Source of the DNA: Flavobacteriaceae bacterium F08102
GTDB taxonomy: Bacteria; Bacteroidota; Bacteroidia; Flavobacteriales; Flavobacteriaceae
Assembly (NCBI GenBank): GCA_023015935.1
Contig: JALKAY010000009.1
Location: 1 to 64,000 of the forward strand
Length of the DNA stretch: 64,000 nucleotides
Direction: 5' to 3'
Position 1 is the first letter of the stretch; each line of letters begins with the position of its first letter. This document shows, in pieces, positions 8,365 through 18,870 of the stretch. Under the pieces are notes generated by a model. The model had not been told where the DNA came from, did no database searches, and saw only the letters and a program-made list of their open reading frames with translations. A program made the position numbers and the translations under genes.

Positions 8365-9648
8365 TTATTTTTGTGCCGCTTGCATTTTCTCTCGAATTTC
8401 TTTTAAACACAAATTACCGATACTTCCTTCATGCCGATGCTGTACGTTTTTATGAGCTTTAAACGTACCGTCTTGAACCATTGCCCCCACTTGCTTATAT
8501 GCATCTCTAAAGGGAACCCCACGTTGAACTAAGGCATTAACTTCTTCCACCGTAAATAAATAATCATATCGAGGGTCATCTAAGATTTTCGTATTTACCT
8601 CTACACTTTTTATGGCAAAAATCATCATTTCCAAACACGATTTCATCGTTTGGATAGCAGGGAGTAAGCACTCTTTAAGCAATTGTAAATCTCGGTGATA
8701 ACCACTGGGTAAATTGGTTGTAAGCAACATTAATTGATTTGGTAAATTCTGGAGCACATTACACTTTCCGCGAATTAACTCAAACACATCTGGATTTTTC
8801 TTATGTGGCATAATACTCGATCCGGTTGTAAATTCATCTGGAAAACTGATAAAATTAAAATTCTGACTCATGTACAAACAAAGATCCATAGCCATTTTTG
8901 AAACAGTACCCGCCACCATCGCAATAGCACTAGCCACCGCCTTCTCGGTTTTACCACGACTCATTTGTGCAGCAACAACATTGTACTTTAAGGTTTCAAA
9001 TCCTAACAACGAAGTCGTAAAGGTTCGGTCTATCCCAAAAGAACTTCCATAACCAGCAGCAGAACCTAAAGGGTTTTGATTGACAATTTTGTAAGCCGCA
9101 TTCAAGAAGTACACATCATCAATTAGACTTTCTGCATAGGCCGAAAACCACAATCCGAAAGAAGATGGCATGGCAATTTGCAAATGTGTATACCCTGGCA
9201 ACAACACCTCCTTATACCTATCTGCTTTTCCCATTAACTCCTCAAATAATTCGAAAATTTCTGATTTGATTAAATCGATCTCATCTTTTAGGTACAGATG
9301 CATATCTACTAAAACTTGATCGTTCCTTGAACGTGCGGTATGAATTTTTTTTCCTGTATCTCCCAACATTTCTGTCAGTAAAAATTCCACCTTTGAATGC
9401 ACATCTTCAAATTCATCTTCAATAATAAAATTTCCTTTTTCTATATTGTTTAAGATTCCCTTTAGGGTAGCCTCAATCCGTTTAATTTCATTATCCGTGA
9501 GAATTTCAATTTTATGTAGCATTTTGGCATGTGCTAATGAGCCTATTACATCGTATTTAGCCAAAACTAAATCGAGCATTCGATCATTACCCACGGTAAA
9601 AATATCTATTTTTTGATCTGTACTAAATCCTTTATCCCAAAGTTTCAT
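8365..9648 (-). CDS. argH: Argininosuccinate lyase
   Basis: It cleaves argininosuccinate to arginine and fumarate, the last step of the pathway. The 427-residue protein shows the fumarase/aspartase superfamily regions: HTARSRNDQVLVDMHLYLKD, PGYTHLQIAMPSSFGLWF, NPLGSAAGYGSSF and the signature TGSSIMPHKKNPDVFE with the catalytic serine loop. It is somewhat shorter than the roughly 460 residues of proteobacterial enzymes, with no missing active-site segment. It is the last gene of the arginine operon, 22 bases after argE. A perfect palindrome lies just past its stop. Confidence 0.96.
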   Translation of the reverse strand: MKLWDKGFSTDQKIDIFTVGNDRMLDLVLAKYDVIGSLAHAKMLHKIEILTDNEIKRIEATLKGILNNIEKGNFIIEDEFEDVHSKVEFLLTEMLGDTGKKIHTARSRNDQVLVDMHLYLKDEIDLIKSEIFELFEELMGKADRYKEVLLPGYTHLQIAMPSSFGLWFSAYAESLIDDVYFLNAAYKIVNQNPLGSAAGYGSSFGIDRTFTTSLLGFETLKYNVVAAQMSRGKTEKAVASAIAMVAGTVSKMAMDLCLYMSQNFNFISFPDEFTTGSSIMPHKKNPDVFELIRGKCNVLQNLPNQLMLLTTNLPSGYHRDLQLLKECLLPAIQTMKSCLEMMIFAIKSVEVNTKILDDPRYDYLFTVEEVNALVQRGVPFRDAYKQVGAMVQDGTFKAHKNVQHRHEGSIGNLCLKEIREKMQAAQK

Positions 9649-9670
9649 AATTTCTTATTTTTTTAATGAC

Positions 9671-10732
9671 TTAAAGTGTTCTTTCCAATAAGTCAATATA
9701 CAACTGTATTCCTTCTTCAATTTCATGAAGGTAAATAAACTCATCTGCGGTATGTGATCGTAACGAATCACCTGGCCCCATTTTTAAGGATGGACAGCTT
9801 AAAACGGCTTGATCTGACAAAGTTGGCGAACCGTAGGTTTCTCTTCCTAACGCAATCCCTGCTTTTACCAAATCGTGATCCATAGGAATCGACGATGAAT
9901 TTAAACGAAGTGAACGTTCTTTTACCTCTACATTAACCGATGATTTTACAAAATCTAACACCTCTACATTACTGTATTCATCCGTAATCCGGATATCTAC
10001 CACAAAATGACACTCCGCTGGAATAACATTGTGTTGACTTCCTGCATTGATTTGCGTTACGGTCATTTTAATTTTCCCTAACGTTTTCGATACTCGAGGA
10101 AACTCAAAGGATTTAAACCAATGAATAGCATCAACAGCTTTATAAATAGCATTCTCTCCCAATCCGTGCGCAGCGTGTCCAGCCGTTCCGTGCGCATAAC
10201 AATCTAACACCAACAATCCCTTTTCTGCAACCGCGAGTTGCATTTGGGTAGGCTCTCCTACGATAGCGACATCTATAGGTGGTAAGTTTGGCAATACACT
10301 ATTTAATCCGTTACTCCCTGAATTTTCTTCTTCCGCGGAAGCGACAATCACCAAGTTATAGCGCAACCCTTTACGCTTATAAAAATACGTAAATAAAACA
10401 ATTAATGAAACGAGGCAGCCCCCAGCATCATTTGACCCTAGCCCATAAAGCTTCTCATCTTCAATAATAGGCTCAAACGGATCTTTGGTATACGCCGAAT
10501 TTGGTTTTACTGTATCGTGATGAGAATTTAACAAAAGCGTTGGCTTGGCTTCGTCAAAATCTTCATTAAACGCATAAATGTTATTTCCTTGCTGCTGATA
10601 TGGAATTCCGTAGGCTTCAAACCAACCTGCAATGATTTTTGCCGTAGATTCCTCTTCACCCGAAAAAGATTGCGTAGCAATCAACGTTTTTAATAATTCA
10701 ATAGCCTCTTGGCTAAGTTTTTGTATATTCAT
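9671..10732 (-). CDS. argE: N-acyl-ornithine/-citrulline deacylase (M20 family)
   Basis: This M20 metallohydrolase would remove the N-acyl group in the arginine pathway. Metal ligands are visible in LLNSHHDTVKP and GLGSNDAGGCLVS, and the catalytic acid in ASAEEENSGSNGL; the dimerisation lid follows (QINAGSQHNVIP). The length, 353 residues, is normal. Because the operon encodes the argF' carbamoyltransferase, which acts on acylated ornithine, the natural substrate is probably acyl-citrulline rather than acyl-ornithine. Whether the acyl group is acetyl or succinyl cannot be settled here. Its ATG overlaps the argB stop by 4 bases, implying translational coupling. Confidence 0.9.
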   Translation of the reverse strand: MNIQKLSQEAIELLKTLIATQSFSGEEESTAKIIAGWFEAYGIPYQQQGNNIYAFNEDFDEAKPTLLLNSHHDTVKPNSAYTKDPFEPIIEDEKLYGLGSNDAGGCLVSLIVLFTYFYKRKGLRYNLVIVASAEEENSGSNGLNSVLPNLPPIDVAIVGEPTQMQLAVAEKGLLVLDCYAHGTAGHAAHGLGENAIYKAVDAIHWFKSFEFPRVSKTLGKIKMTVTQINAGSQHNVIPAECHFVVDIRITDEYSNVEVLDFVKSSVNVEVKERSLRLNSSSIPMDHDLVKAGIALGRETYGSPTLSDQAVLSCPSLKMGPGDSLRSHTADEFIYLHEIEEGIQLYIDLLERTL

Positions 10733-11514
10733 GAGTGCAAAAATAAGGTGGTTCTAGGGTACAGTACATCATTTAACATTGGGGTACTTCCAATACAAAC
10801 ACGTGAAACTCCGCGGTGTAATGCATCAAAACTATTCGCTAATTTTGGCAACATCCCATCAGCTATTCGTTTTTCTTTTTTGAGTTGCTCATAGCTTGTT
10901 TGATCAATCCGTTCAATCAAAGAATTTTCATCACTTACCTCCTTTAAAACACCTTTTTTATCAAAACAATAAAATAGGGTAGTTTCATATTGAGATGACA
11001 TAGCTACAGCAATCTCTGCTGCAATAGTATCTGCATTGGTATTCAGCAATTGTCCATTTGTATCATGGGTAATTGCACAAAAAACAGGTATCATTCCAAG
11101 GGTTAACAACCCTTCAATACCCATTGCATCAACCTTTGTTACATCTCCCACAAAACCAAAATCAATAGGGTCTTTCGGACGAATAGTGGCTTGGATAAGA
11201 TTTGCATCAGCCCCCGTAAGTCCAATGGCATTACATTTCATTCCTTGCAGCTGTGCCACTATCTTTTTATTGACAAGTCCCCCATAGACCATGGTAATTA
11301 AGACTAAACTTTCTTCATTAGTAACTCTTCTACCATTGACCATTTCAGTAACAATTCCCATTTTATTACCAAAATCTGTCGCCATTTTTCCTCCTCCGTG
11401 AACGAGTAATTTCGCTCCTTCTAAATGTGTAAAGGCCTGTAATAAGGCATTAAGCTTTTTAGTATCTTCAATAACCCCTCCTCCAATTTTCACTATGTGT
11501 AACGTTGGTTTCAT
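10729..11514 (-). CDS. argB: N-acylglutamate kinase (acetylglutamate kinase family)
   Basis: It phosphorylates the gamma-carboxyl of N-acylglutamate with ATP. The 261 residues show the amino-acid kinase fold: HIVKIGGGVIED, LLVHGGGKMATDFGNKMG, VNGRRVTNEESL, and NTNADTIAAEIAVAM followed by a DKKGVLKE loop. There is no N-terminal helix of the kind associated with arginine feedback inhibition in hexameric enzymes, so feedback control here may be weak or absent. It overlaps argF' upstream and argE downstream by 4 bases each. Confidence 0.94.
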   Translation of the reverse strand: MKPTLHIVKIGGGVIEDTKKLNALLQAFTHLEGAKLLVHGGGKMATDFGNKMGIVTEMVNGRRVTNEESLVLITMVYGGLVNKKIVAQLQGMKCNAIGLTGADANLIQATIRPKDPIDFGFVGDVTKVDAMGIEGLLTLGMIPVFCAITHDTNGQLLNTNADTIAAEIAVAMSSQYETTLFYCFDKKGVLKEVSDENSLIERIDQTSYEQLKKEKRIADGMLPKLANSFDALHRGVSRVCIGSTPMLNDVLYPRTTLFLHS

Positions 11515-12455
11515 GCGCCTAAAATTTTTGACAGCACTACTTGCGCTGCATAGGTTCTATTATTTGCCTGATCTATCACTACCGAATAGTCGCTGTCCAG
11601 TACAGCATCCTCTACCACTACATTTCTTCGTACTGGCAAACAATGCATAAATTTAGCTGAATTTGTCTTTTCCATTTTAGCCGCAGTAACCGTCCAATTT
11701 CGATCAACCGAAAGCACCTTTCCATATGACTCAAAAGCACTCCAATTTTTTGCATAGACAAAGTCGGCTTGTTCAAATGCTTTATCCTGATCATATTCAA
11801 CCCTAGATTCCTTCACTATATCAGGAGACAACTCATAACCTTTTGGGTGGGTAATTACCAATTCTACGTCCATTTTTTGCATCATTTCTACAAACGAATT
11901 AGCGACCGCTTGTGGCAATGCTTTTGGATGCGGAGCCCAAGTCAACACGACTTTCGGTTTAGGACTTGAAAGGTGTTCTTTTATGGTAATGGCATCGGCT
12001 AAGGCTTGAAGCGGGTGACCCGTAGCGCTTTCTAAGCTTAGAATCGGTACAGAAGCGTATTTTATAAATGCTTTAATAACCTTCTCTTCATAATCATCCT
12101 GTTGATTTTTCAACTGTGCAAAAGCTCTTACTGCAATAACATCGGCGTACTGTGAAACTACCTGTGCCGCTTCTTTTACATGTTCTGCCGCAGTATTTTC
12201 CATGATCGAACCATCCTCAAACTCCAATATCCACCCATCCGAAGAAATATTCATGGTAATAACATGCATACCTAAGTGCAAAGCGGCCTTTTCAGTACTC
12301 AACCGTGTACGGAGGCTTGGATTAAAAAACAGCATTACCAAGGTTTTATTTTTCCCCAGTGCCTGTAAAGCATAAGGTTCTTTTTTTAATTCAATAGCCG
12401 ATTGTACTAGTTCATTTAAATTGGTTATATCGGCAACGCGCGTATAATTTTTCAT
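11511..12455 (-). CDS. argF': N-acyl-L-ornithine carbamoyltransferase (ArgF' type)
   Basis: It transfers carbamoyl phosphate to N-acylated ornithine, not to free ornithine. From ATG 12455 it has 314 residues. The carbamoyl-phosphate site reads FFNPSLRTRLSTEKAAL (43-59), where ordinary enzymes have STRTR, and HCLPVRRN lies near the end. Both resemble the succinylornithine enzyme of Bacteroides fragilis. The residue known to separate succinyl (Pro90) from acetyl (Glu) users appears as Ala90 here (in MENTAAEHVKEA, 85-96), so acyl preference is uncertain. A start at 12482 is possible, but 12455 gives the 4-nt ATGA overlap with argD seen at other junctions in this operon. Confidence 0.92.
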   Translation of the reverse strand: MKNYTRVADITNLNELVQSAIELKKEPYALQALGKNKTLVMLFFNPSLRTRLSTEKAALHLGMHVITMNISSDGWILEFEDGSIMENTAAEHVKEAAQVVSQYADVIAVRAFAQLKNQQDDYEEKVIKAFIKYASVPILSLESATGHPLQALADAITIKEHLSSPKPKVVLTWAPHPKALPQAVANSFVEMMQKMDVELVITHPKGYELSPDIVKESRVEYDQDKAFEQADFVYAKNWSAFESYGKVLSVDRNWTVTAAKMEKTNSAKFMHCLPVRRNVVVEDAVLDSDYSVVIDQANNRTYAAQVVLSKILGA

Positions 12456-13576
12456 ACTAAATCTTTTAAGGCGATTATACATTGATCAATGTGGTTCTTT
12501 TTTATTGTGAGTGGAGGTAAAATTCGAAGGAGGTTTTTATTCGTGGCCCCTCCTGTAAAAATATGTTTATCATAAATCAATTTTTTACGCAATGTAGCCA
12601 CCTCAACGTCAAATTCAAGTCCGAGCATTAACCCCCTGCCTTTAATTTGTTTCACCCCCTTGAGTTGTTGCGCTTGTTGTATAAAATAGGTGGACATCGC
12701 TTGGGTATTTTCTAACAAGGCCTCTTGTTGAATTACTTCGAGCACAGCAATTGCTGCAGCACACGCCAAGTGATTTCCTCCAAAGGTAGTTCCTAACATA
12801 CCGTGCTTGGCTTCAATATGTGAGCCTATGAGAATCCCGGCAATAGGAAAACCATTCCCCATTCCTTTAGCTACCGTAATAATATCGGGTTCTATATCAT
12901 GTGCTTGAAACGAAAAGAAATGACCGCTTCGTCCATACCCTGATTGAATTTCATCTACAATAAACAAGGCTTCGTGTTCCTTACACAAACGTTCAACACC
13001 TTTAAAAAAGGCAGAAGTTCCTTCATCTAAACCGCCTACGCCTTGAATTCCTTCAATGATAACAGCACTTACCGTTCCTTTTCGCAGTTCATTTTCAAGA
13101 AGGTCTAACTGGTTTAGTGGTAAAAAAGTGGTGGGATTACATTGATTAATTGGTGCTTGTATAATGGGATTATCAGTTACTGAAACGGCAGCCGAAGTTC
13201 TCCCATGAAAGGCATTCTTAAACGCAATAACCCGTGATTTACCAGTGACAAAAGAGGCTAGCTTTAACGCATTTTCAACTGCTTCTGCACCTGAATTACA
13301 CAAAAATAATTGATCCGTTTCTCTTCCGGATACTTTACCGAGCAGGGTTGCCAGTTTTTGTTGCAAAGGGTTTTGGATAGCATTGGAATAAAAGCCAATT
13401 GCATTTACCTGCTCTGTGATTGCATTCGTATAGTGAGGATGGCTATGGCCAATAGAGATTACTCCATGACCACCGTATAAATCTAAGTATTCTACTTCGT
13501 TTTGATCATACACATACATATCCTTCGCCTTGACGGGTGTTACATCGTAAAGTGGATAAACATCAAATAAATTCAT
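12452..13576 (-). CDS. argD: Acyl-ornithine aminotransferase
   Basis: A PLP-dependent class III aminotransferase that interconverts N-acylglutamate semialdehyde and N-acylornithine with glutamate as amino donor. Visible features over 374 residues are LDLYGGHGVISIGHSHP, FLCNSGAEAVENALKLA (phosphate-binding loop), FIVDEIQSGYGRSG (PLP-ring Asp) and the Schiff-base lysine in DIITVAKGMGNGFPIAG. Like proC, argF' and argB it joins its neighbours by 4-nt overlaps. Its length is slightly below the roughly 400 of E. coli ArgD and normal for Bacteroidota. Confidence 0.94.
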   Translation of the reverse strand: MNLFDVYPLYDVTPVKAKDMYVYDQNEVEYLDLYGGHGVISIGHSHPHYTNAITEQVNAIGFYSNAIQNPLQQKLATLLGKVSGRETDQLFLCNSGAEAVENALKLASFVTGKSRVIAFKNAFHGRTSAAVSVTDNPIIQAPINQCNPTTFLPLNQLDLLENELRKGTVSAVIIEGIQGVGGLDEGTSAFFKGVERLCKEHEALFIVDEIQSGYGRSGHFFSFQAHDIEPDIITVAKGMGNGFPIAGILIGSHIEAKHGMLGTTFGGNHLACAAAIAVLEVIQQEALLENTQAMSTYFIQQAQQLKGVKQIKGRGLMLGLEFDVEVATLRKKLIYDKHIFTGGATNKNLLRILPPLTIKKNHIDQCIIALKDLV

Positions 13577-14373
13577 AAGTTTGCTTGATTTAATTGGTTA
13601 ATTTTTTGGTAGGAGCTCACGATTCCTTTGATTAAAGAAGAACTCAATCCACTGTGCTCCATTTGATTCAAACCTTCAATCGTACAACCTCCAGGCGTGG
13701 TTACCCGATCTATTTCTTCTTCTGGATGTTTTCCTGAGCCTTCCAATAATGTGGCAGCTCCCAAACAAGTTTGCATCGCCATTTCCTGTGCAATTTTAGC
13801 TTCAAACCCCAACTGTATAGCTCCTTGTGTGGTAGCCCGAATTAATCGCATCCAAAAGGCGATACCACTTGCACAAATCACGGTAGCCGCCTGCATTTGT
13901 TCCTCGTTAATTTGCACCGTAGTTCCCAAGCGGTCAAAAACAGCCTTTGCAATAAGAATACGATCTTTCCCTCGTTGATTCGCACACATACAGGTAATCG
14001 ATTTCGCAACGGCAATAGCCGTGTTTGGCATTGCTCGAATGATAAATTTATCGGATCCGAGCAGAGCCTCAAGGTTCTGAATTTTAAATCCAGTAATTGT
14101 TGAAATCAACACGTGTTTATCCGTAAGCAAATCTTTTATTTCAAATAAAATATGCTCAATATGACGCGGTTGAACAGTAAAAATCAAAATATCCGATTGT
14201 TTAACAGCCTCTTTATTCTCGGTAGTGACTTGTACATTTTTATATGCTGCCCAACTTTCAAGATCATCTATGTTGCGCTTAGTAAGGAAAAGACTGGTAT
14301 AGGCATTATTAACAATTAATCCTTTGGCAATAGAACGTCCTAAATTACCTGCTCCTATGATGGCTATCTTCAT
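13573..14373 (-). CDS. proC: Pyrroline-5-carboxylate reductase
   Basis: It reduces P5C to proline with NAD(P)H. The 266 residues begin IAIIGAGNLGRSIAKGL (dinucleotide-binding), continue with DILIFTVQPRHIEHIL and IIRAMPNTAIAVAKSI, and end with the family signature TTPGGCTIEGLNQMEHSGL. It sits between argC and argD in an otherwise complete arginine operon, so proline synthesis would be made under arginine-pathway control. This gene order recurs in related bacteria as far as I know. The alternative is a role inside arginine metabolism through glutamate semialdehyde, which cannot be decided from sequence. Confidence 0.93.
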   Translation of the reverse strand: MKIAIIGAGNLGRSIAKGLIVNNAYTSLFLTKRNIDDLESWAAYKNVQVTTENKEAVKQSDILIFTVQPRHIEHILFEIKDLLTDKHVLISTITGFKIQNLEALLGSDKFIIRAMPNTAIAVAKSITCMCANQRGKDRILIAKAVFDRLGTTVQINEEQMQAATVICASGIAFWMRLIRATTQGAIQLGFEAKIAQEMAMQTCLGAATLLEGSGKHPEEEIDRVTTPGGCTIEGLNQMEHSGLSSSLIKGIVSSYQKINQLNQANL

Positions 14374-14382
14374 ATATTCAAT

Positions 14383-15357
14383 TTAAAAATAAGTTGCTTT
14401 TAATTGTAACCCAAGATCCTGTTCAAATCCAAATATAAGATTCATGTTTTGAACCGCTTGTCCAGAGGCTCCTTTTACCAAATTATCAAGTATTGAGGTC
14501 ACCAATAAATACCCTTCGTGTTGATGTAAGTGTAAATGGCACTGATTGGTATTTACTACTTGTTTTAAATGAATCTCTTCTCTTGATACCTGTGTAAAAA
14601 TTGCATTTTTATAAAAATGTTCATAGAGTTCATAGGCCTCATTCAAAGATCCTGAATACCGCGTATATGCAGTAGTAAAAATACCACGAGTGAAATTTCC
14701 CCTACTAGGTAAAAACAACAAACGACCGGTAGTACCTCCCACCTGTGATAAACTTTCATTAATTTCTCCTAAGTGCTGATGAGTAAAGGGTTTATACCAA
14801 GAAACATTGCCGTTTCTCCAACTAAAATGCGTACTATTTGACGGTTGAACTCCTGCTCCTGTACTGCCTGTTACTGCATTTATATGAACTTCTTGGTTTA
14901 ATTGTCCCGCCTTCGCTAAAGGTAACAAAGCCAATTCAATGGCCGTTGCAAAACACCCTGGATTAGCGATATATTGTGCTTTTTCAATGGCAACTTTATT
15001 TAATTCTGGAAGCCCATATATAAATTCCATTCCTTCAAAATTCGCATCTTTTTTTAACCGAAAATCATTACTCAAATCAATAATTATTGTATTAGGATCA
15101 AAATCGTATTTCAATAAAAATTGAGTTGAATTACCATGACCTAAGCATAAAAAAAGAACATCAACATCTGCGTGAATTTCATCCGAAAACACCAAATCTG
15201 TCATCCCTAATAAATCAGGATGGGCATGACTAATAGGTTTCCCTGCTTTGGTAGTACTATAGACAAAATCAATTTCTACAGCAGGATGGTTCAACAAGAT
15301 ACGGATAAGTTCACCCCCTGTATAGCCAGAGCCCCCAACTATTCCAATTTGTTTCAT
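14383..15357 (-). CDS. argC: N-acyl-gamma-glutamyl-phosphate reductase
   Basis: It reduces N-acylglutamyl phosphate to the semialdehyde with NADPH. The 324-residue protein has GIVGGSGYTGGELIRIL at the N-terminus and the catalytic cysteine in ANPGCFATAIELALLP. It also has TGSTGAGVQPSNSTHFSWR and KPFTHQHLGEI, containing the catalytic histidine region. It overlaps the argG stop by 4 bases and is separated from proC by 9 bases. Confidence 0.95.
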   Translation of the reverse strand: MKQIGIVGGSGYTGGELIRILLNHPAVEIDFVYSTTKAGKPISHAHPDLLGMTDLVFSDEIHADVDVLFLCLGHGNSTQFLLKYDFDPNTIIIDLSNDFRLKKDANFEGMEFIYGLPELNKVAIEKAQYIANPGCFATAIELALLPLAKAGQLNQEVHINAVTGSTGAGVQPSNSTHFSWRNGNVSWYKPFTHQHLGEINESLSQVGGTTGRLLFLPSRGNFTRGIFTTAYTRYSGSLNEAYELYEHFYKNAIFTQVSREEIHLKQVVNTNQCHLHLHQHEGYLLVTSILDNLVKGASGQAVQNMNLIFGFEQDLGLQLKATYF

Positions 15358-16541
15358 AAATTTTGATTTACGTAATTATAGATTTTATTTGCATTCGAAG
15401 AGATTTTAATAAACCCTTTTGCATCCTCGGCGGTCCAGCCGTTATTCATTTCTCCATAAACTCCAAAAGATCCACTCATCAAATCATGAGGCGATTCTAT
15501 CCCGTTTAATTCAAATCGGTATGGATGTAAAGTGACACTCACTTCTCCGGTAACATTTTTCTGCGTATCGGTTAGAAAGGCTTCAATATTACGCATAACT
15601 TCATCTAAATAGTTCCCTTCATGTAAGAGCATTCCGTAAAATGTTCCCAGTTGATCTTTTTGGAATTGTTGCCACTTGGTCAAAATGTGTTTTTCTAATA
15701 AATGATGGGCCTTAATAATAAGTATTGGCGCCGCGGCTTCAAATCCAACCCGACCTTTAATACCAATAATAGTATCCCCAACATGAATGTCTCGTCCAAT
15801 AGCATAGTCTGCAGCCAAGTCATTTAACGCAATTATTAAAGACACAGGATCAGTGACTTTTCCGTCAATAGCATTTAATTCCCCATTTTTAAAACCCAGT
15901 TTTATCGTTACGGGGGTTGTCTTTTTAAGGGGGCTTGGATAGGCTTCCTCTGGCAAAGGCAAGTGAGAAGTTAAAGTTTCCTCTCCCCCAACAGAGGTCC
16001 CCCACAGTCCTTTATTTATAGAATATTTTGCTTTTTCCCAAGAATAATTAATTCCATGTGCTGTTAAATACTCAATTTCAGCTTTTCTAGACAGTTGTTG
16101 ATCTCGAATTGGGGTAATGATCGTTATTTCAGGTGCAATAATTTGAAAAATCATATCAAACCGTACTTGATCATTCCCTGCCCCAGTACTTCCATGGGCA
16201 ATATGTGTAGCGCCTATTTTTTTTGCGTATTTTACAATTTCTATGGCTTGTACGATTCGCTCAGCACTTACTGAAAGCGGATAAGTATTGTTTTTTAATA
16301 CATTCCCAAAAATGAGAAACTTAACTACCTTGTCGTAAAAAAGTTGAACAGCATCAATAGAAGTATATGATTTTGCACCTAAAGCCAACGCTTTTTCATG
16401 AATTTCTTTAATTTCTTCGGTCGAAAAGCCTCCTGTGTTTACACTCACAGCATGCACTTCAAACGCATGTTCAGTTGATAAATATTTGGCACAGTACGAA
16501 GTATCAAGCCCTCCACTATAGGCTAAAACTAATTTTTTCAT
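15354..16541 (-). CDS. argG: Argininosuccinate synthase
   Basis: It joins citrulline and aspartate with ATP hydrolysis to give argininosuccinate. The 395 residues start with the PP-loop LAYSGGLDTSYCAKYL. HGSTGAGNDQVRFDMIFQII (aspartate/citrulline region), IRDQQLSRKAEIEYL and YSINKGLWGTSVGGEE follow. It is the second structural gene of the operon, which here runs in the order GNAT, argG, argC; its ATG overlaps the GNAT stop by 4 bases. Confidence 0.95.
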   Translation of the reverse strand: MKKLVLAYSGGLDTSYCAKYLSTEHAFEVHAVSVNTGGFSTEEIKEIHEKALALGAKSYTSIDAVQLFYDKVVKFLIFGNVLKNNTYPLSVSAERIVQAIEIVKYAKKIGATHIAHGSTGAGNDQVRFDMIFQIIAPEITIITPIRDQQLSRKAEIEYLTAHGINYSWEKAKYSINKGLWGTSVGGEETLTSHLPLPEEAYPSPLKKTTPVTIKLGFKNGELNAIDGKVTDPVSLIIALNDLAADYAIGRDIHVGDTIIGIKGRVGFEAAAPILIIKAHHLLEKHILTKWQQFQKDQLGTFYGMLLHEGNYLDEVMRNIEAFLTDTQKNVTGEVSVTLHPYRFELNGIESPHDLMSGSFGVYGEMNNGWTAEDAKGFIKISSNANKIYNYVNQNL

Positions 16542-17164
16542 TTTTTTCTGTTTTTAAGGAAGATCGTTTGTTTTATATTTTTAAGTCGTTCGAGCACTTT
16601 TCGATTATATGGATGCTTTACATCTTTTTTAGGAACCGTTACCTTAGAGGGATCATAAAGCATTCCCGTACACAAACACATTTTGCGTTCAGTTCTGGTC
16701 AAAATATCAAAGTTTTTACAAGTTTGACAACCTGCCCAAAACTGAGGGTCGTCGGTTAGTTCAGAAAAGGTTACTGGTTTATATCCCAATTCATAATTTA
16801 TTTTCATTACGGCTAAGCCCGTAGTGATTCCAAATATTTTAGCATCGGGATACTTTTCTTTAGAATATTCGAAAATGACCTTTTTAATTTTTTTAGCCAA
16901 GCCCAAATTTCTAAAATCAGGATGGACTATCAAGCCCGAATTAGCTACAAACTTACCGTGACCCCACGCTTCTATATAACAAAACCCCGCGAATTTATCG
17001 CCCTCTAATGCAATGACGGCATTTTTATTCTCCAGCTTTTTAATAATGTATTCAGGAGTTCTTTTTGCGATTCCAGTACCGCGCTGTTCGGCAGAGACAG
17101 CAATGGTTTCACATATGATATTTGCATAACGCGTATGCGATTTATCAGCAATGATAATATCCAT
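16538..17164 (-). CDS. GNAT acyltransferase; candidate first enzyme of arginine synthesis
   Basis: This 208-residue GNAT protein has the fold's acyl-CoA loop in FRNLGLAKKIKKVIFEYSK and a preceding VANSGLIVHPD strand. It is the first gene of an arginine operon that has no argA or argJ, so it is the natural candidate for making N-acetyl- or N-succinylglutamate; that is inference from position. C-terminal to the GNAT core are two cysteine pairs, GCQTC and CLC, within a tail unusual for GNATs, which could bind a metal or sense redox state. The start is taken at ATG 17164, directly before the first beta-strand IIIA; ATG 17173 is possible. It lies about 100 bases downstream of an Arg-rich leader peptide. 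Confidence 0.85.
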   Translation of the reverse strand: MDIIIADKSHTRYANIICETIAVSAEQRGTGIAKRTPEYIIKKLENKNAVIALEGDKFAGFCYIEAWGHGKFVANSGLIVHPDFRNLGLAKKIKKVIFEYSKEKYPDAKIFGITTGLAVMKINYELGYKPVTFSELTDDPQFWAGCQTCKNFDILTRTERKMCLCTGMLYDPSKVTVPKKDVKHPYNRKVLERLKNIKQTIFLKNRKK

Positions 17165-17219
17165 ATTAAACATGAATTATGTTAACTACAATTGGTAAAC
17201 TACTAAGATGATTTGAGGC

Positions 17220-17327
17220 GGAACCGGACTCACCTAAGTTCCATAATAAGAAGACACCCTTACGGGCGACGGAAACCGCGAATGCGGTTAATTGGAGTGA
17301 TGATATGTGTTATCATTAATTTCACGC
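17220..17327 (-). promoter_or_regulatory. Putative arginine attenuator RNA
   Basis: Minus-strand RNA 5' to 3' can form several hairpins. One around the leader start pairs GTGA (17325-17322) with TCAC (17300-17297) and TGATA with TATCA. Hairpin A, AACCGC-ATTC-GCGGTT (17289-17274), contains leader Arg codons. Hairpin B, GCCC-GTAA-GGGT (17267-17256), contains the stop codon in a GNRA-type loop. Hairpin C pairs GGAAC (17242-17238) with GTTCC (17224-17220). The GGAAC arm can instead pair upstream with GGTTTCC (17277-17271) on the Arg-codon hairpin, so A and C have mutually exclusive partners. No U-run follows hairpin C, so the output may be translational, Rho-linked or pause-based rather than intrinsic termination. 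The remaining gap to 17496 is AT-rich with no clear gene. Confidence 0.55.
17260..17316 (-). CDS. Arginine operon leader peptide (18 aa)
   Basis: ATG at 17316 opens an 18-codon frame, MITHIITPINRIRGFRRP, ending in TAA at 17262-17260. Four of the last eight residues are Arg (codons CGC, CGC, CGT, CGC at positions 11, 13, 16, 17). It is the only such frame in the 5' region of the arginine operon, on the operon's strand. Its Arg codons lie exactly in the stem of a hairpin and its stop codon in the loop of the next. This is the layout of amino-acid attenuator leaders (his, trp, leu), here with the product of the operon as the repeated residue. A weak -7 box, TACTATTG (17337-17330), would place transcription start just upstream. 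No homology support is available here. Confidence 0.7.
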   Translation of the reverse strand: MITHIITPINRIRGFRRP

Positions 17328-17496
17328 TACAATAGTACAAAATTTTTCAAAAAAAGAACACTCTCATGTAATAAAATCGCATAAATTTTACAAACTACTG
17401 ACAATCTGTAAGTTAATATGATAGTTTTTAGTTTTAATTAACAAAATTACACGGATCAGCATCGTATTTAATATTTTTAAGCACTTAAAAACCCCT

Positions 17497-18870
17497 ATGA
17501 AAGAACTTTTTTTTAGTTTAGTACTGTTCAGTGTCACCGTTGGAGGGGCTCAATCGATAGAAATCCCCTCGAGTGAGATGTTTGCTTCTGCAGACATTCC
17601 ATCTCTTGCGACTAGTTCATCTACATACGAACCCAGTGAAAAGTTCACATCAACGCTCTTAGCCGAACGCCTTGCTACCCTTAACGACAACACGCCGTTT
17701 AATGTTCCTTATAATGCCACTGTAGAACGTTTTATACGCCTTTATTTAAAAACTAAAAGGGACTTCTATTCAGACTTAATGGGAAGATCAAAGCGTTATT
17801 TCCCAATTTTTGAAGAGCATTTAGACAAGCATAATTTACCCCTCGAGTTAAAATACCTCTCCGTGGTAGAATCAGCCCTCCTACCTACTTCTAAATCAAG
17901 AGTAGGTGCTTCAGGACTTTGGCAGTTTATGTATCATACTGCACTTGAAAACGGGCTAAAAATAAATTCGTACATAGATGAACGAGCCGATCCGATAAAA
18001 TCTACAGAAGCGGCTTGCAATTACCTTTCGTATCTACATAAGCGTTTTGGTGACTGGGAATTGGCTCTTGCCGCATACAATGCAGGCCCAGGCAATGTTT
18101 CAAAAGCTATTCGTCGTGCCGGTGGTCAACGTAATTATTGGAATATTAGACAATATTTACCCGCAGAAACTAGAGGTTATGTCCCTGCTTTTTATACCAG
18201 TCTATATTTGTTTTCTTATGCAGATGAACACGGTATATACCCAACAAGTATTCCTCGAAAATTTAGGGAAACAGACACAATCCAGGTGCATGAAAAAACC
18301 TCTTTTGCTTCTATTTCAGAAAAACTAGCAATACGTCTTGAAGATCTTATAGAGTTAAATCCTCAATATAAACTTCATACAATTCCAAAAAATTACGTCC
18401 TCACTTTACCAAAGAATAAGATCGAAGCCTATTTAGACATTCCAAGCGACCAATTATTTGCAAAATCGGTTGAAAAGGCTACCTATATTCGCCCTAATGA
18501 ATACAATAGTCACCTTGTTAAAGCAGGAGATAATTTGCGTAAAATTGCTGCTAAATACGCAATTACAATTGAACAACTTAAGAAATGGAACGGACTACAA
18601 ACTGACTATTTAATTGAAGACCAACGTCTTGTGATTACCGATCAAGAAATAGCCAATCCGATAAAACCAACGGCTAACATGGTTATTAAACCACAACTGC
18701 CTAAGGTAGCGTATACATCTTATACAGTACAAGAAGGAGATTCTCTTTTCTTGATTTCTAAAAAATTTAATAATGTTACTGTAAACGACCTTAGAGAATG
18801 GAACAATCTCTGGGATTCATCGTACGTTAAACCCGGAACCACCCTTCAAATTTTAACAAAAAATAAATAA
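17497..18870 (+). CDS. Lytic transglycosylase with two LysM domains (MltD-like), copy 1
   Basis: It should cleave peptidoglycan to 1,6-anhydro-muropeptides in the periplasm. After a signal peptide (LFFSLVLFSVTVGGAQS) the 457-residue protein has an SLT domain at about 100-230. The catalytic Glu125 lies in VVESALLPTSKSRVGASG, followed by LWQFMYHTA, DERADPIKSTEAACNYL and LALAAYNAGPGNV. Two LysM modules follow, near 345-390 (VKAGDNLRKIAAKYAI) and 408-453 (YTVQEGDSLFLISKKF). It is the first of two adjacent paralogues, 137 bases apart. The start at 17497 is the only one that preserves the signal peptide. Confidence 0.93.
   Translation: MKELFFSLVLFSVTVGGAQSIEIPSSEMFASADIPSLATSSSTYEPSEKFTSTLLAERLATLNDNTPFNVPYNATVERFIRLYLKTKRDFYSDLMGRSKRYFPIFEEHLDKHNLPLELKYLSVVESALLPTSKSRVGASGLWQFMYHTALENGLKINSYIDERADPIKSTEAACNYLSYLHKRFGDWELALAAYNAGPGNVSKAIRRAGGQRNYWNIRQYLPAETRGYVPAFYTSLYLFSYADEHGIYPTSIPRKFRETDTIQVHEKTSFASISEKLAIRLEDLIELNPQYKLHTIPKNYVLTLPKNKIEAYLDIPSDQLFAKSVEKATYIRPNEYNSHLVKAGDNLRKIAAKYAITIEQLKKWNGLQTDYLIEDQRLVITDQEIANPIKPTANMVIKPQLPKVAYTSYTVQEGDSLFLISKKFNNVTVNDLREWNNLWDSSYVKPGTTLQILTKNK

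What the first reader, a model, noticed from the sequence alone, without database searches (positions are those of the whole stretch)
17174..17340. Arg-rich leader peptide and switchable hairpins upstream of the arginine operon
An 18-codon frame (17316-17260, minus) encodes MITHIITPINRIRGFRRP, with four Arg in its last eight residues. It sits 5' of a nine-gene arginine operon on the same strand. The Arg codons lie in one hairpin (17289-17274), the stop codon in the GNRA loop of the next (17267-17256), and a third hairpin (17242-17220) shares an arm that can pair upstream instead. This is the architecture of ribosome-mediated attenuation, as known for his, trp and leu operons. I do not know of a described arginine-specific version in Bacteroidota. 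No U-run follows the last hairpin, so the output step may be unlike classic attenuation.
Basis: partly seen in the sequence, partly recalled or inferred. Interest (0 to 1): 0.88.

Follow-up and report, generated by a model that had tools for sequence, protein, structure and literature searches.

The report
Arginine-sensing leader peptide upstream of arg operon
Many bacteria of the flavobacteria family seem to control arginine synthesis with a tiny arginine-rich peptide and two conserved RNA hairpins at the front of the operon, a sensor whose final on/off step does not look like any textbook version.

Summary
The Arg-rich frame is the 5' part of an element: leader ORF ending Arg-Arg-Pro-stop, hairpin 1 with the stop codon in its loop, hairpin 2 with a near-invariant UGNGU loop. 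A covariance model matches 184 of 299 genomes of the window's family; all 134 matches whose GNAT position was printed lie 36-95 bases before that gene. It stays before argG in two genomes with another first gene. Over 122 distinct loci the Arg frame has no stop in 14 codons; the other frames have 112 and 73. The arginine repressor domain was found in 0 of 60 genomes searched. Corrections: the conserved start is GTG (17325), not ATG; hairpin 2 covaries across species but is not in the predicted fold of the window's own sequence; the U-rich stretch follows hairpin 1, not hairpin 2; no alternative pairing was found. I read it as ribosome-mediated sensing of Arg-tRNA supply. The sensor is well supported; the output step is not shown. 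It works like classic attenuation but lacks the classic terminator: a new variant of a known kind.

The parts
17330..17337 (-). candidate -7 promoter box TACTATTG (one mismatch to TAnnTTTG)
   Evidence: sequence; consensus named in a PMC9723704 passage; a similar box before the GTG in close relatives. Inference, no TSS data
   Evidence: frame open in 122 of 122 distinct loci
17274..17289 (-). upstream hairpin AACCGC-AUUC-GCGGUU holding two Arg codons; local to close relatives, position shifts
17255..17268 (-). hairpin 1 CGCCC-GUAA-GGGUG: last Arg codon and Pro codon in the 5' arm, stop codon in the loop
   Evidence: inner pairs at probability 0.5 or more in 101 of 122 loci
17243..17254 (-). 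U-rich linker (UCUUCUUAUUAU); with hairpin 1 the only terminator-like site that the scan of 17000-17500 reports
   Evidence: at least 5 T in 8 in 76 of 122 loci
17220..17242 (-). hairpin 2 GGAAC-UU-A-GG-UGAGU-CC-G-GUUCC with covarying stem and near-invariant GG-UGNGU-CC tip
   Evidence: not in the predicted fold of the window sequence alone
17217..17274 (-). full match of covariance model R1 (73.6 bits, the only match in this genome at E 0.01)
17174..17219 (-). G-poor tail between hairpin 2 and the first gene
   Evidence: G 5.3% over 122 loci against 12.6% upstream of 21 other window genes
16538..17173 (-). first gene, GNAT acetyltransferase
8365..16541 (-). argG, argC, proC, argD-like, N-acetylornithine carbamoyltransferase, argB, argE/dapE-like deacylase, argH

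Best explanation
It is an arginine-sensing, ribosome-mediated leader-peptide attenuator. The mRNA begins close to a short ORF whose last codons include several CGU/CGC Arg codons. When charged tRNA-Arg is short the ribosome halts on these codons; the last of them form the 5' arm of hairpin 1, so hairpin 1 cannot form. When arginine is plentiful the ribosome reaches the stop codon in the loop and leaves, and hairpin 1 with its U-rich linker can form as a pause or weak terminator. Whether RNA polymerase goes on into the operon then depends on this state together with hairpin 2. Shown by comparison: ORF, Arg codons, hairpins, linkage to the arginine operon, no ArgR domain in the genomes searched. 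Inferred: promoter position, stalling, direction of control, a transcriptional rather than translational output, and any role of hairpin 2.
For: Arg frame open in 122 of 122 distinct loci over 14 codons, other frames 112 and 73 stops; Arg up to 62% at a codon position against at most 10% in the other frames; mean 4.1 Arg in the last 14 residues against 0.84 per 14 codons in the other frames. Arg codons before the box are CGU/CGC in 228 of 265 cases against 71 of 188 in 15 window ORFs. Of the 11 loci without the exact box, 10 keep an Arg-rich frame when read by eye, some with hairpin 1 rebuilt; the eleventh, L051, is cut by a contig end. Stop-to-loop spacing 27-30 nt in 117 of 122. One match per matching genome except G150, whose second is weak. 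134 of 134 printed matches with a printed GNAT place are on the same strand 36-95 bases upstream. Still before argG when the first gene is another one. ArgR domain PF01316 in 0 of 60 genomes, seen in 9 of 14 controls, among them a Bacteroides. Hiding the 5' arm of hairpin 1 does not change the accessibility of the first gene's start (120 loci, median change -0.001), which speaks against sequestration.
Against: Hairpin 2 has a U-rich tail in only 24 of 122 loci, is weak (median -7.4 kcal/mol) and is not in the predicted fold of the window's own sequence. No covarying antiterminator helix. A ribosome resting on the stop codon would also block hairpin 1, and one halted at codons -4 or -5 would leave it free, so a simple hairpin-1 terminator does not give clean control. 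115 of 299 family genomes have no match at E 0.01. The leader's N-terminus and start vary: an in-frame ATG in 82, ATG or GTG in 106, and one of ATG, GTG, TTG in 122 of 122. No expression data.
Confidence: 0.7

Rival explanations
1. Rho-dependent attenuation: the halted ribosome shields the RNA, and when it leaves, Rho loads on the G-poor tail and ends transcription.
For: Tail after hairpin 2 has C 17%, G 5%; control upstream regions C 15%, G 13%; most loci have no U-run after hairpin 2.
Against: Only 21 control genes from one window; hairpin 2's conserved loop is not explained; no Rho data.
Confidence: 0.3
2. Hairpin 2 is a recognition site for a protein (or for RNA polymerase itself), and the leader peptide only controls access to it.
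For: GG-UGNGU-CC tip nearly invariant while the stem covaries; no alternative RNA partner; of 9 AGGTGNGTCC sites in the genome only this one lies in such a stem, judged by eye.
Against: No candidate factor; relatives without R1 keep Arg leaders with other hairpins; a few loci have changed tips (L022, L059, L253, L255).
Confidence: 0.3
3. Nascent-chain arrest (as in TnaC or SpeFL, recalled): the peptide itself senses arginine or ornithine and halts the ribosome at the stop codon.
For: Arg-Arg-Pro-stop ending in most loci; the codon after Pro is TAA 102, TAG 15, TGA 1, no stop 4 of 122.
Against: The stop codon lies further downstream in several loci (endings such as RRPLGR, RRTFVRA, RRPFGGI); the Pro codon is explained by hairpin 1.
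Confidence: 0.1
4. A pure RNA regulator (riboswitch or protein site) whose conserved CG-rich sequence only happens to read as Arg codons.
For: Both hairpins are conserved at RNA level.
Against: Arg codons outside hairpin 1 are enriched in one frame only, that frame has no stops, and it survives when hairpin 1 is rebuilt; no Rfam match.
Confidence: 0.05

Closest known systems
Ribosome-mediated attenuation of his, trp, leu operons (recalled)
   Same: short leader ORF rich in codons for the end product, control codons in one hairpin arm, stop codon at that hairpin's loop, biosynthetic operon downstream
   Different: arginine; no U-run terminator after the last hairpin in most loci, no antiterminator pairing found, last hairpin has a conserved loop
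Leader-peptide attenuation reported for amino-acid operons of Flavobacterium psychrophilum (PMC9723704, section 19 and passages read)
   Same: same broad group of bacteria, leader peptides before amino-acid biosynthesis operons; pheA and hisG 5' elements said to occur in other genera
   Different: arginine operon not named in what I read; no genome of genus g161 (unnamed; Flavobacterium is my guess) matched R1 (17 are listed as without); six of eight g161 loci share another leader with 2-3 Arg
rbfL arginine-sensing leader peptide of Staphylococcus aureus (PMC13009471, passages read)
   Same: Arg codons in a leader peptide sense arginine supply by ribosome pausing
   Different: controls translation of a biofilm regulator by covering its ribosome binding site; AGA and rare AGG codons
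TnaC and SpeFL arrest peptides (recalled)
   Same: halting near a stop codon next to Pro or Arg
   Different: those depend on fixed nascent-chain residues; here only Arg codons are kept and the stop can move
Arginine repressor ArgR (PF01316)
   Same: a usual regulator of such operons (recalled)
   Different: 0 of 60 genomes searched have the domain

Membership tests
classic ribosome-mediated transcription attenuation | short ORF directly upstream of a biosynthetic operon | tested here: met
   122 distinct loci, no stop in frame; translation itself not tested
classic ribosome-mediated transcription attenuation | ORF enriched in codons for the operon's end product | tested here: met
classic ribosome-mediated transcription attenuation | control codons lie in an RNA hairpin arm with the stop codon at its loop | tested here: met
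   in 4 of 122 loci the frame runs on past the loop
classic ribosome-mediated transcription attenuation | last hairpin is an intrinsic terminator with a U-run | tested here: not met
   not in the window; 24 of 122 loci have at least 5 T in 8
classic ribosome-mediated transcription attenuation | mutually exclusive antiterminator pairing | tested here: inconclusive
   no such helix covaries; invariant segments cannot covary
classic ribosome-mediated transcription attenuation | derepression on starvation for the amino acid | not testable with these tools
   needs reporters
arrest peptides (TnaC, SpeFL) | fixed nascent-chain residues relative to the stop codon | tested here: not met
   shifted stops and C-terminal extensions
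Rho-dependent attenuation | Rho-dependent 3' ends in the leader | not testable with these tools
   only composition is suggestive
known RNA families (T-box, riboswitches, Flavo-1) | match to an Rfam covariance model | tested here: not met
   whole window at gathering score, (one tRNA only); leader at lax threshold; six further loci
ArgR regulon | ArgR encoded in the genome | tested here: not met
   0 of 60 genomes, own genome included

The most novel reading that the evidence does not exclude
A new form of leader-peptide control: the ribosome's position on Arg codons is read out not by a terminator/antiterminator pair but through a dedicated RNA hairpin with a near-invariant UGNGU tip that recruits or directly engages a factor (an RNA-binding protein, a NusG-like protein or RNA polymerase), and this has taken the place of ArgR in a bacterial family.
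Probability: 0.3. Interest if true: 0.82.

Novelty: new variant of a known kind. Interest (0 to 1): 0.64.

Why it matters
It gives bacteria in which no ArgR domain was found a testable arginine regulator, adds arginine to the amino acids that biosynthetic leader peptides may sense, and supplies a conserved hairpin whose reader is unknown. With 184 of 299 sampled family genomes carrying it, the element is a ready case for finding how attenuation works in Bacteroidota. Here the stretch from the putative promoter box to the first gene is about 165 bases, so reporters are easy to build.

Tried and rejected
Intrinsic terminator at hairpin 2: rejected for most loci, 24 of 122 with a U-rich tail; some relatives (for example L002, L003, L057) do have one. 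Pseudoknot between hairpin 2 loop GGUG and Arg codons CGCC: L058 fits as a double change, L022 and L263 contradict it. GNRA tertiary docking: the loop is not GNRA in several loci. Sequestration of the GNAT start: no change in accessibility. Shine-Dalgarno reading of AGGUG: does not explain the GU kept after N (sequence argument). AGGTGNGTCC elsewhere in the genome: 9 sites against 3 for the reversed control; the other eight are not in the stem context by eye. Marginal R1 hits outside the family: 10 genomes, 11 matches, E 0.013 to 0.096; tblastn found none of the nine arginine proteins in those loci, so I took them as chance. Second R1 match in G150: 26.1 bits, not followed. Histidine leader as a comparison: no ORF with at least 4 His near hisG in the window's genome, left there. 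GNAT as the thing regulated: rejected, since G159 and G226 have another first gene.

Rows dropped: of 88 GNAT-positive relatives 82 were fetched; G115, G124, G125, G132, G139 and G146 were not then (part of G124 was read later). Three of the 82 (L064, L072, L074) gave no anchor. A1 uses 58 loci; L006 and L007 (near-copies of L005) and L051 (contig end) were left out of those showing the element. The 122 rows leave out 11 loci without the exact box and merge duplicates. The 80 loci overlap in part with genomes used to build R1. One search looked for the tip by text pattern and missed L249; the model finds it there.

Full report
WHAT IS THERE. On the minus strand a promoter-like box (TACTATTG, 17337-17330) is followed after four bases by a GTG that opens a 21-codon frame, MKLMITHIITPINRIRGFRRP-stop (17325-17260). 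In 14 loci with the same layout (L001-L012, L047, L061) the GTG is shared and an in-frame ATG downstream of it is present in two (L001, L004), so GTG is the likelier start. Then come hairpin 1 (17268-17255, CGCCC-GUAA-GGGUG), a U-rich linker, hairpin 2 (17242-17220), a G-poor tail and the first gene. The operon is GNAT, argG, argC, proC, argD-like, N-acetylornithine carbamoyltransferase, argB, argE/dapE-like deacylase, argH (argG falls just under the TIGR00032 cut-off and argD under TIGR00707, both pass Pfam). The leader folds better than 196 of 200 shuffles (z -2.6). Rfam has no matching family.

CONSERVATION. The GNAT protein was found in 88 of 149 relatives. Upstream stretches of 82 were fetched and 79 could be anchored. 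An exact Arg-Arg-Pro-stop frame ends upstream of the gene in 52 of these 79, 48 of them 73-92 bases before it; the other 27 are variants, cut contigs or other families. An alignment of 58 (A1) folds by RNAalifold into hairpin 2 plus two pairs of hairpin 1, 8 of 10 pairs with changes on both sides. With the structure given, 39 cells show double changes against 10.6 in shuffles and at most 16 in slid versions; further pair types are 18 against 15.3, reached by 13 of 500 shuffles. Of 80 matches aligned to the model, 55 against 21.3, slid versions at most 11 (that alignment is fitted to the model, and neither shuffle corrects for relatedness). Hairpin 1 varies little and gains only weak support from covariation; its rebuilt forms (L026, L166) speak for it. 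Hairpin 2's tip: U, G and G of UGNGU are the same in 58 of 58 rows of A1 and the last U in 57. Against this, the predicted fold of the window's own leader does not contain hairpin 2, and over 122 loci its stem reaches four expected pairs in 64.

SPREAD. Model R1 matches 184 of 299 genomes of the family; GNAT is found in 197 of the same 299. Comparing the printed tables by eye, 179 genomes have both, 5 have R1 alone (two strong: G159, G226; three weak: G149, G241, G328) and 18 have GNAT alone. Of the 150 R1 places printed, 134 have a printed GNAT place, and all 134 lie on the same strand 36-95 bases upstream of it, median 44. In G159 and G226 another gene stands between the element and argG: ArgG and ArgC of the window match there, GNAT does not. 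The element thus goes with the arginine operon, not with the first gene. In a draw of 296 genomes of the phylum 13 family members match at E 1.8e-5 or better and 10 other genomes marginally; the loci of the latter encode none of the nine arginine proteins. All 80 loci (Winogradskyella, Maribacter, Zobellia, Arenibacter, Muricauda, Gillisia, Capnocytophaga, Polaribacter and others) carry it on the same strand upstream of GNAT (25 to 76 bits; partly the same genomes as the training set).

THE FRAME IS CODING-LIKE. In 122 distinct loci with the box CG-N-CGCCC (a few CC-N-CGCCC) the 14 codons before the box contain no stop in the Arg frame; the other two frames contain 112 and 73. Arg reaches 62% at the codon before the box and 43% at codon -5, against at most 10% at any position of the other frames. 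Arg count in the last 14 residues: median 4, minimum 2. Of the Arg codons in the 12 codons before the box 228 of 265 are CGU or CGC, against 71 of 188 in 15 ORFs of the window. By recalled decoding rules these two are read by one tRNA. Where hairpin 1 has been rebuilt or the stop moved, the Arg-rich frame persists (10 of the 11 loci without the exact box, by eye; L264 and others). The N-terminal part is not conserved and the start codon differs between groups.

SECOND LEADER. By a loose rule and without a control, 43 of 122 loci have a further Arg-rich ORF with an ATG (such as MKNLKNKIRCTVPGFPVRFRRRY) upstream; in such loci the second ORF often appears as a longer frame of about 30 codons (by eye). 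Two sensors in series are an open question.

NO REPRESSOR FOUND. The ArgR DNA-binding domain is found in 0 of 60 genomes, the own genome included; the same search rings in 9 of 14 control genomes, among them a Bacteroides. Of 20 R1-negative GNAT genomes looked at, 12 lie outside genus g161: nine carry an Arg-rich leader (G185, G214, G343, G254, G292, G302, G156, G049, G081), G290 a weak one by eye, G288 and G085 none seen. Four of them hold a weak R1-like match on closer search (L237, L230, L228 and, at E 0.053, L240). Of 8 genomes of g161 six share a different leader with two or three Arg (MNKTSLHITSLSRTNRPTTSPEVRML-like, by eye), two none seen. In other families of the order, f2, f15, f9 and f3 show Arg-containing leaders with other hairpins, f5 does not (partly by eye).

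HOW IT MAY WORK. A ribosome waiting at the last Arg codons would cover the 5' arm of hairpin 1; one that has finished leaves it free. This is the geometry of the first hairpin of classic attenuators (recalled). After that the likeness ends. Hairpin 2 sits where a terminator should be, yet only 24 of 122 loci have a U-rich stretch after it, whereas 76 of 122 have one after hairpin 1, and the terminator scan picks hairpin 1 (1 found, 0.3 expected). Hairpin 2's tip hardly varies while its stem varies freely. Where the GG/CC pairs change they change together in L058 and L263; in L022 one pair is kept and one broken. In a scan for covarying columns the best paired columns are hairpin 2's own; weaker isolated pairs between upstream columns and hairpin 2 (up to 0.19 against 0.51) do not line up as a helix. 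Hiding the 5' arm of hairpin 1 does not change the accessibility of the GNAT start (120 loci). So a transcriptional output is likelier than a translational one: pausing or weak termination at hairpin 1, Rho in the tail, or something that reads hairpin 2. I cannot choose among these.

WHAT IS KNOWN. Eight full-text searches listed no paper on an arginine leader peptide in Bacteroidota. PMC9723704 states strong clues for leader-peptide attenuation before amino-acid biosynthesis operons in Flavobacterium psychrophilum and names pheA and hisG among elements found in other genera (section 19); arginine may be in its supplement, which I could not read. PMC7366714 mentions short ORFs reminiscent of leader peptides in Bacteroides 5' UTRs (passages). 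PMC13009471 describes an arginine-sensing leader peptide controlling translation in Staphylococcus (passages). PMC4833913 (passages) treats leader genes generally.

VERDICT. Sensor part about 0.85 likely; transcriptional output about 0.6; best explanation overall 0.7 (unchanged by the checks). New variant of a known kind.

Noticed in passing
L016, L022, L028, L055 and 39 other loci, roughly 200-350 bases upstream of GNAT: A second, upstream Arg-rich leader ORF (MKNLKNKIR..RRR type) in 43 of 122 loci by a loose rule; its stop codon region can fold into a small hairpin.
   Followed up: partly
L267 (G124:C1:338300-340300): In a 0.6 Mb genome of family f16 GNAT and ArgG lie in one continuous open frame, a likely fusion, in line with a role of this GNAT in arginine synthesis.
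   Followed up: partly
L224, L225: Another first gene takes the place of GNAT between the RNA element and argG in two genomes.
   Followed up: yes
L231-L234, L236, L238: Genus g161 has a different leader (MNK..LSRT..P..SPEVR) about 320 bases upstream of GNAT, with a conserved TCTCCCGAAGTACGGA segment.
   Followed up: no
window 17262-17260 and the same codon in 121 other loci: The codon after Arg-Arg-Pro is TAA or TAG in 117 and TGA in 1 of 122 loci.
   Followed up: no
window 13573-14373: proC lies inside the arginine operon.
   Followed up: no
L062, L065, L069, L246, L228: Loci without a good R1 match have a 3' hairpin with loop UACGU, UCCGU or GACGU in place of UGNGU, perhaps one loop type (by eye).
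   Followed up: no
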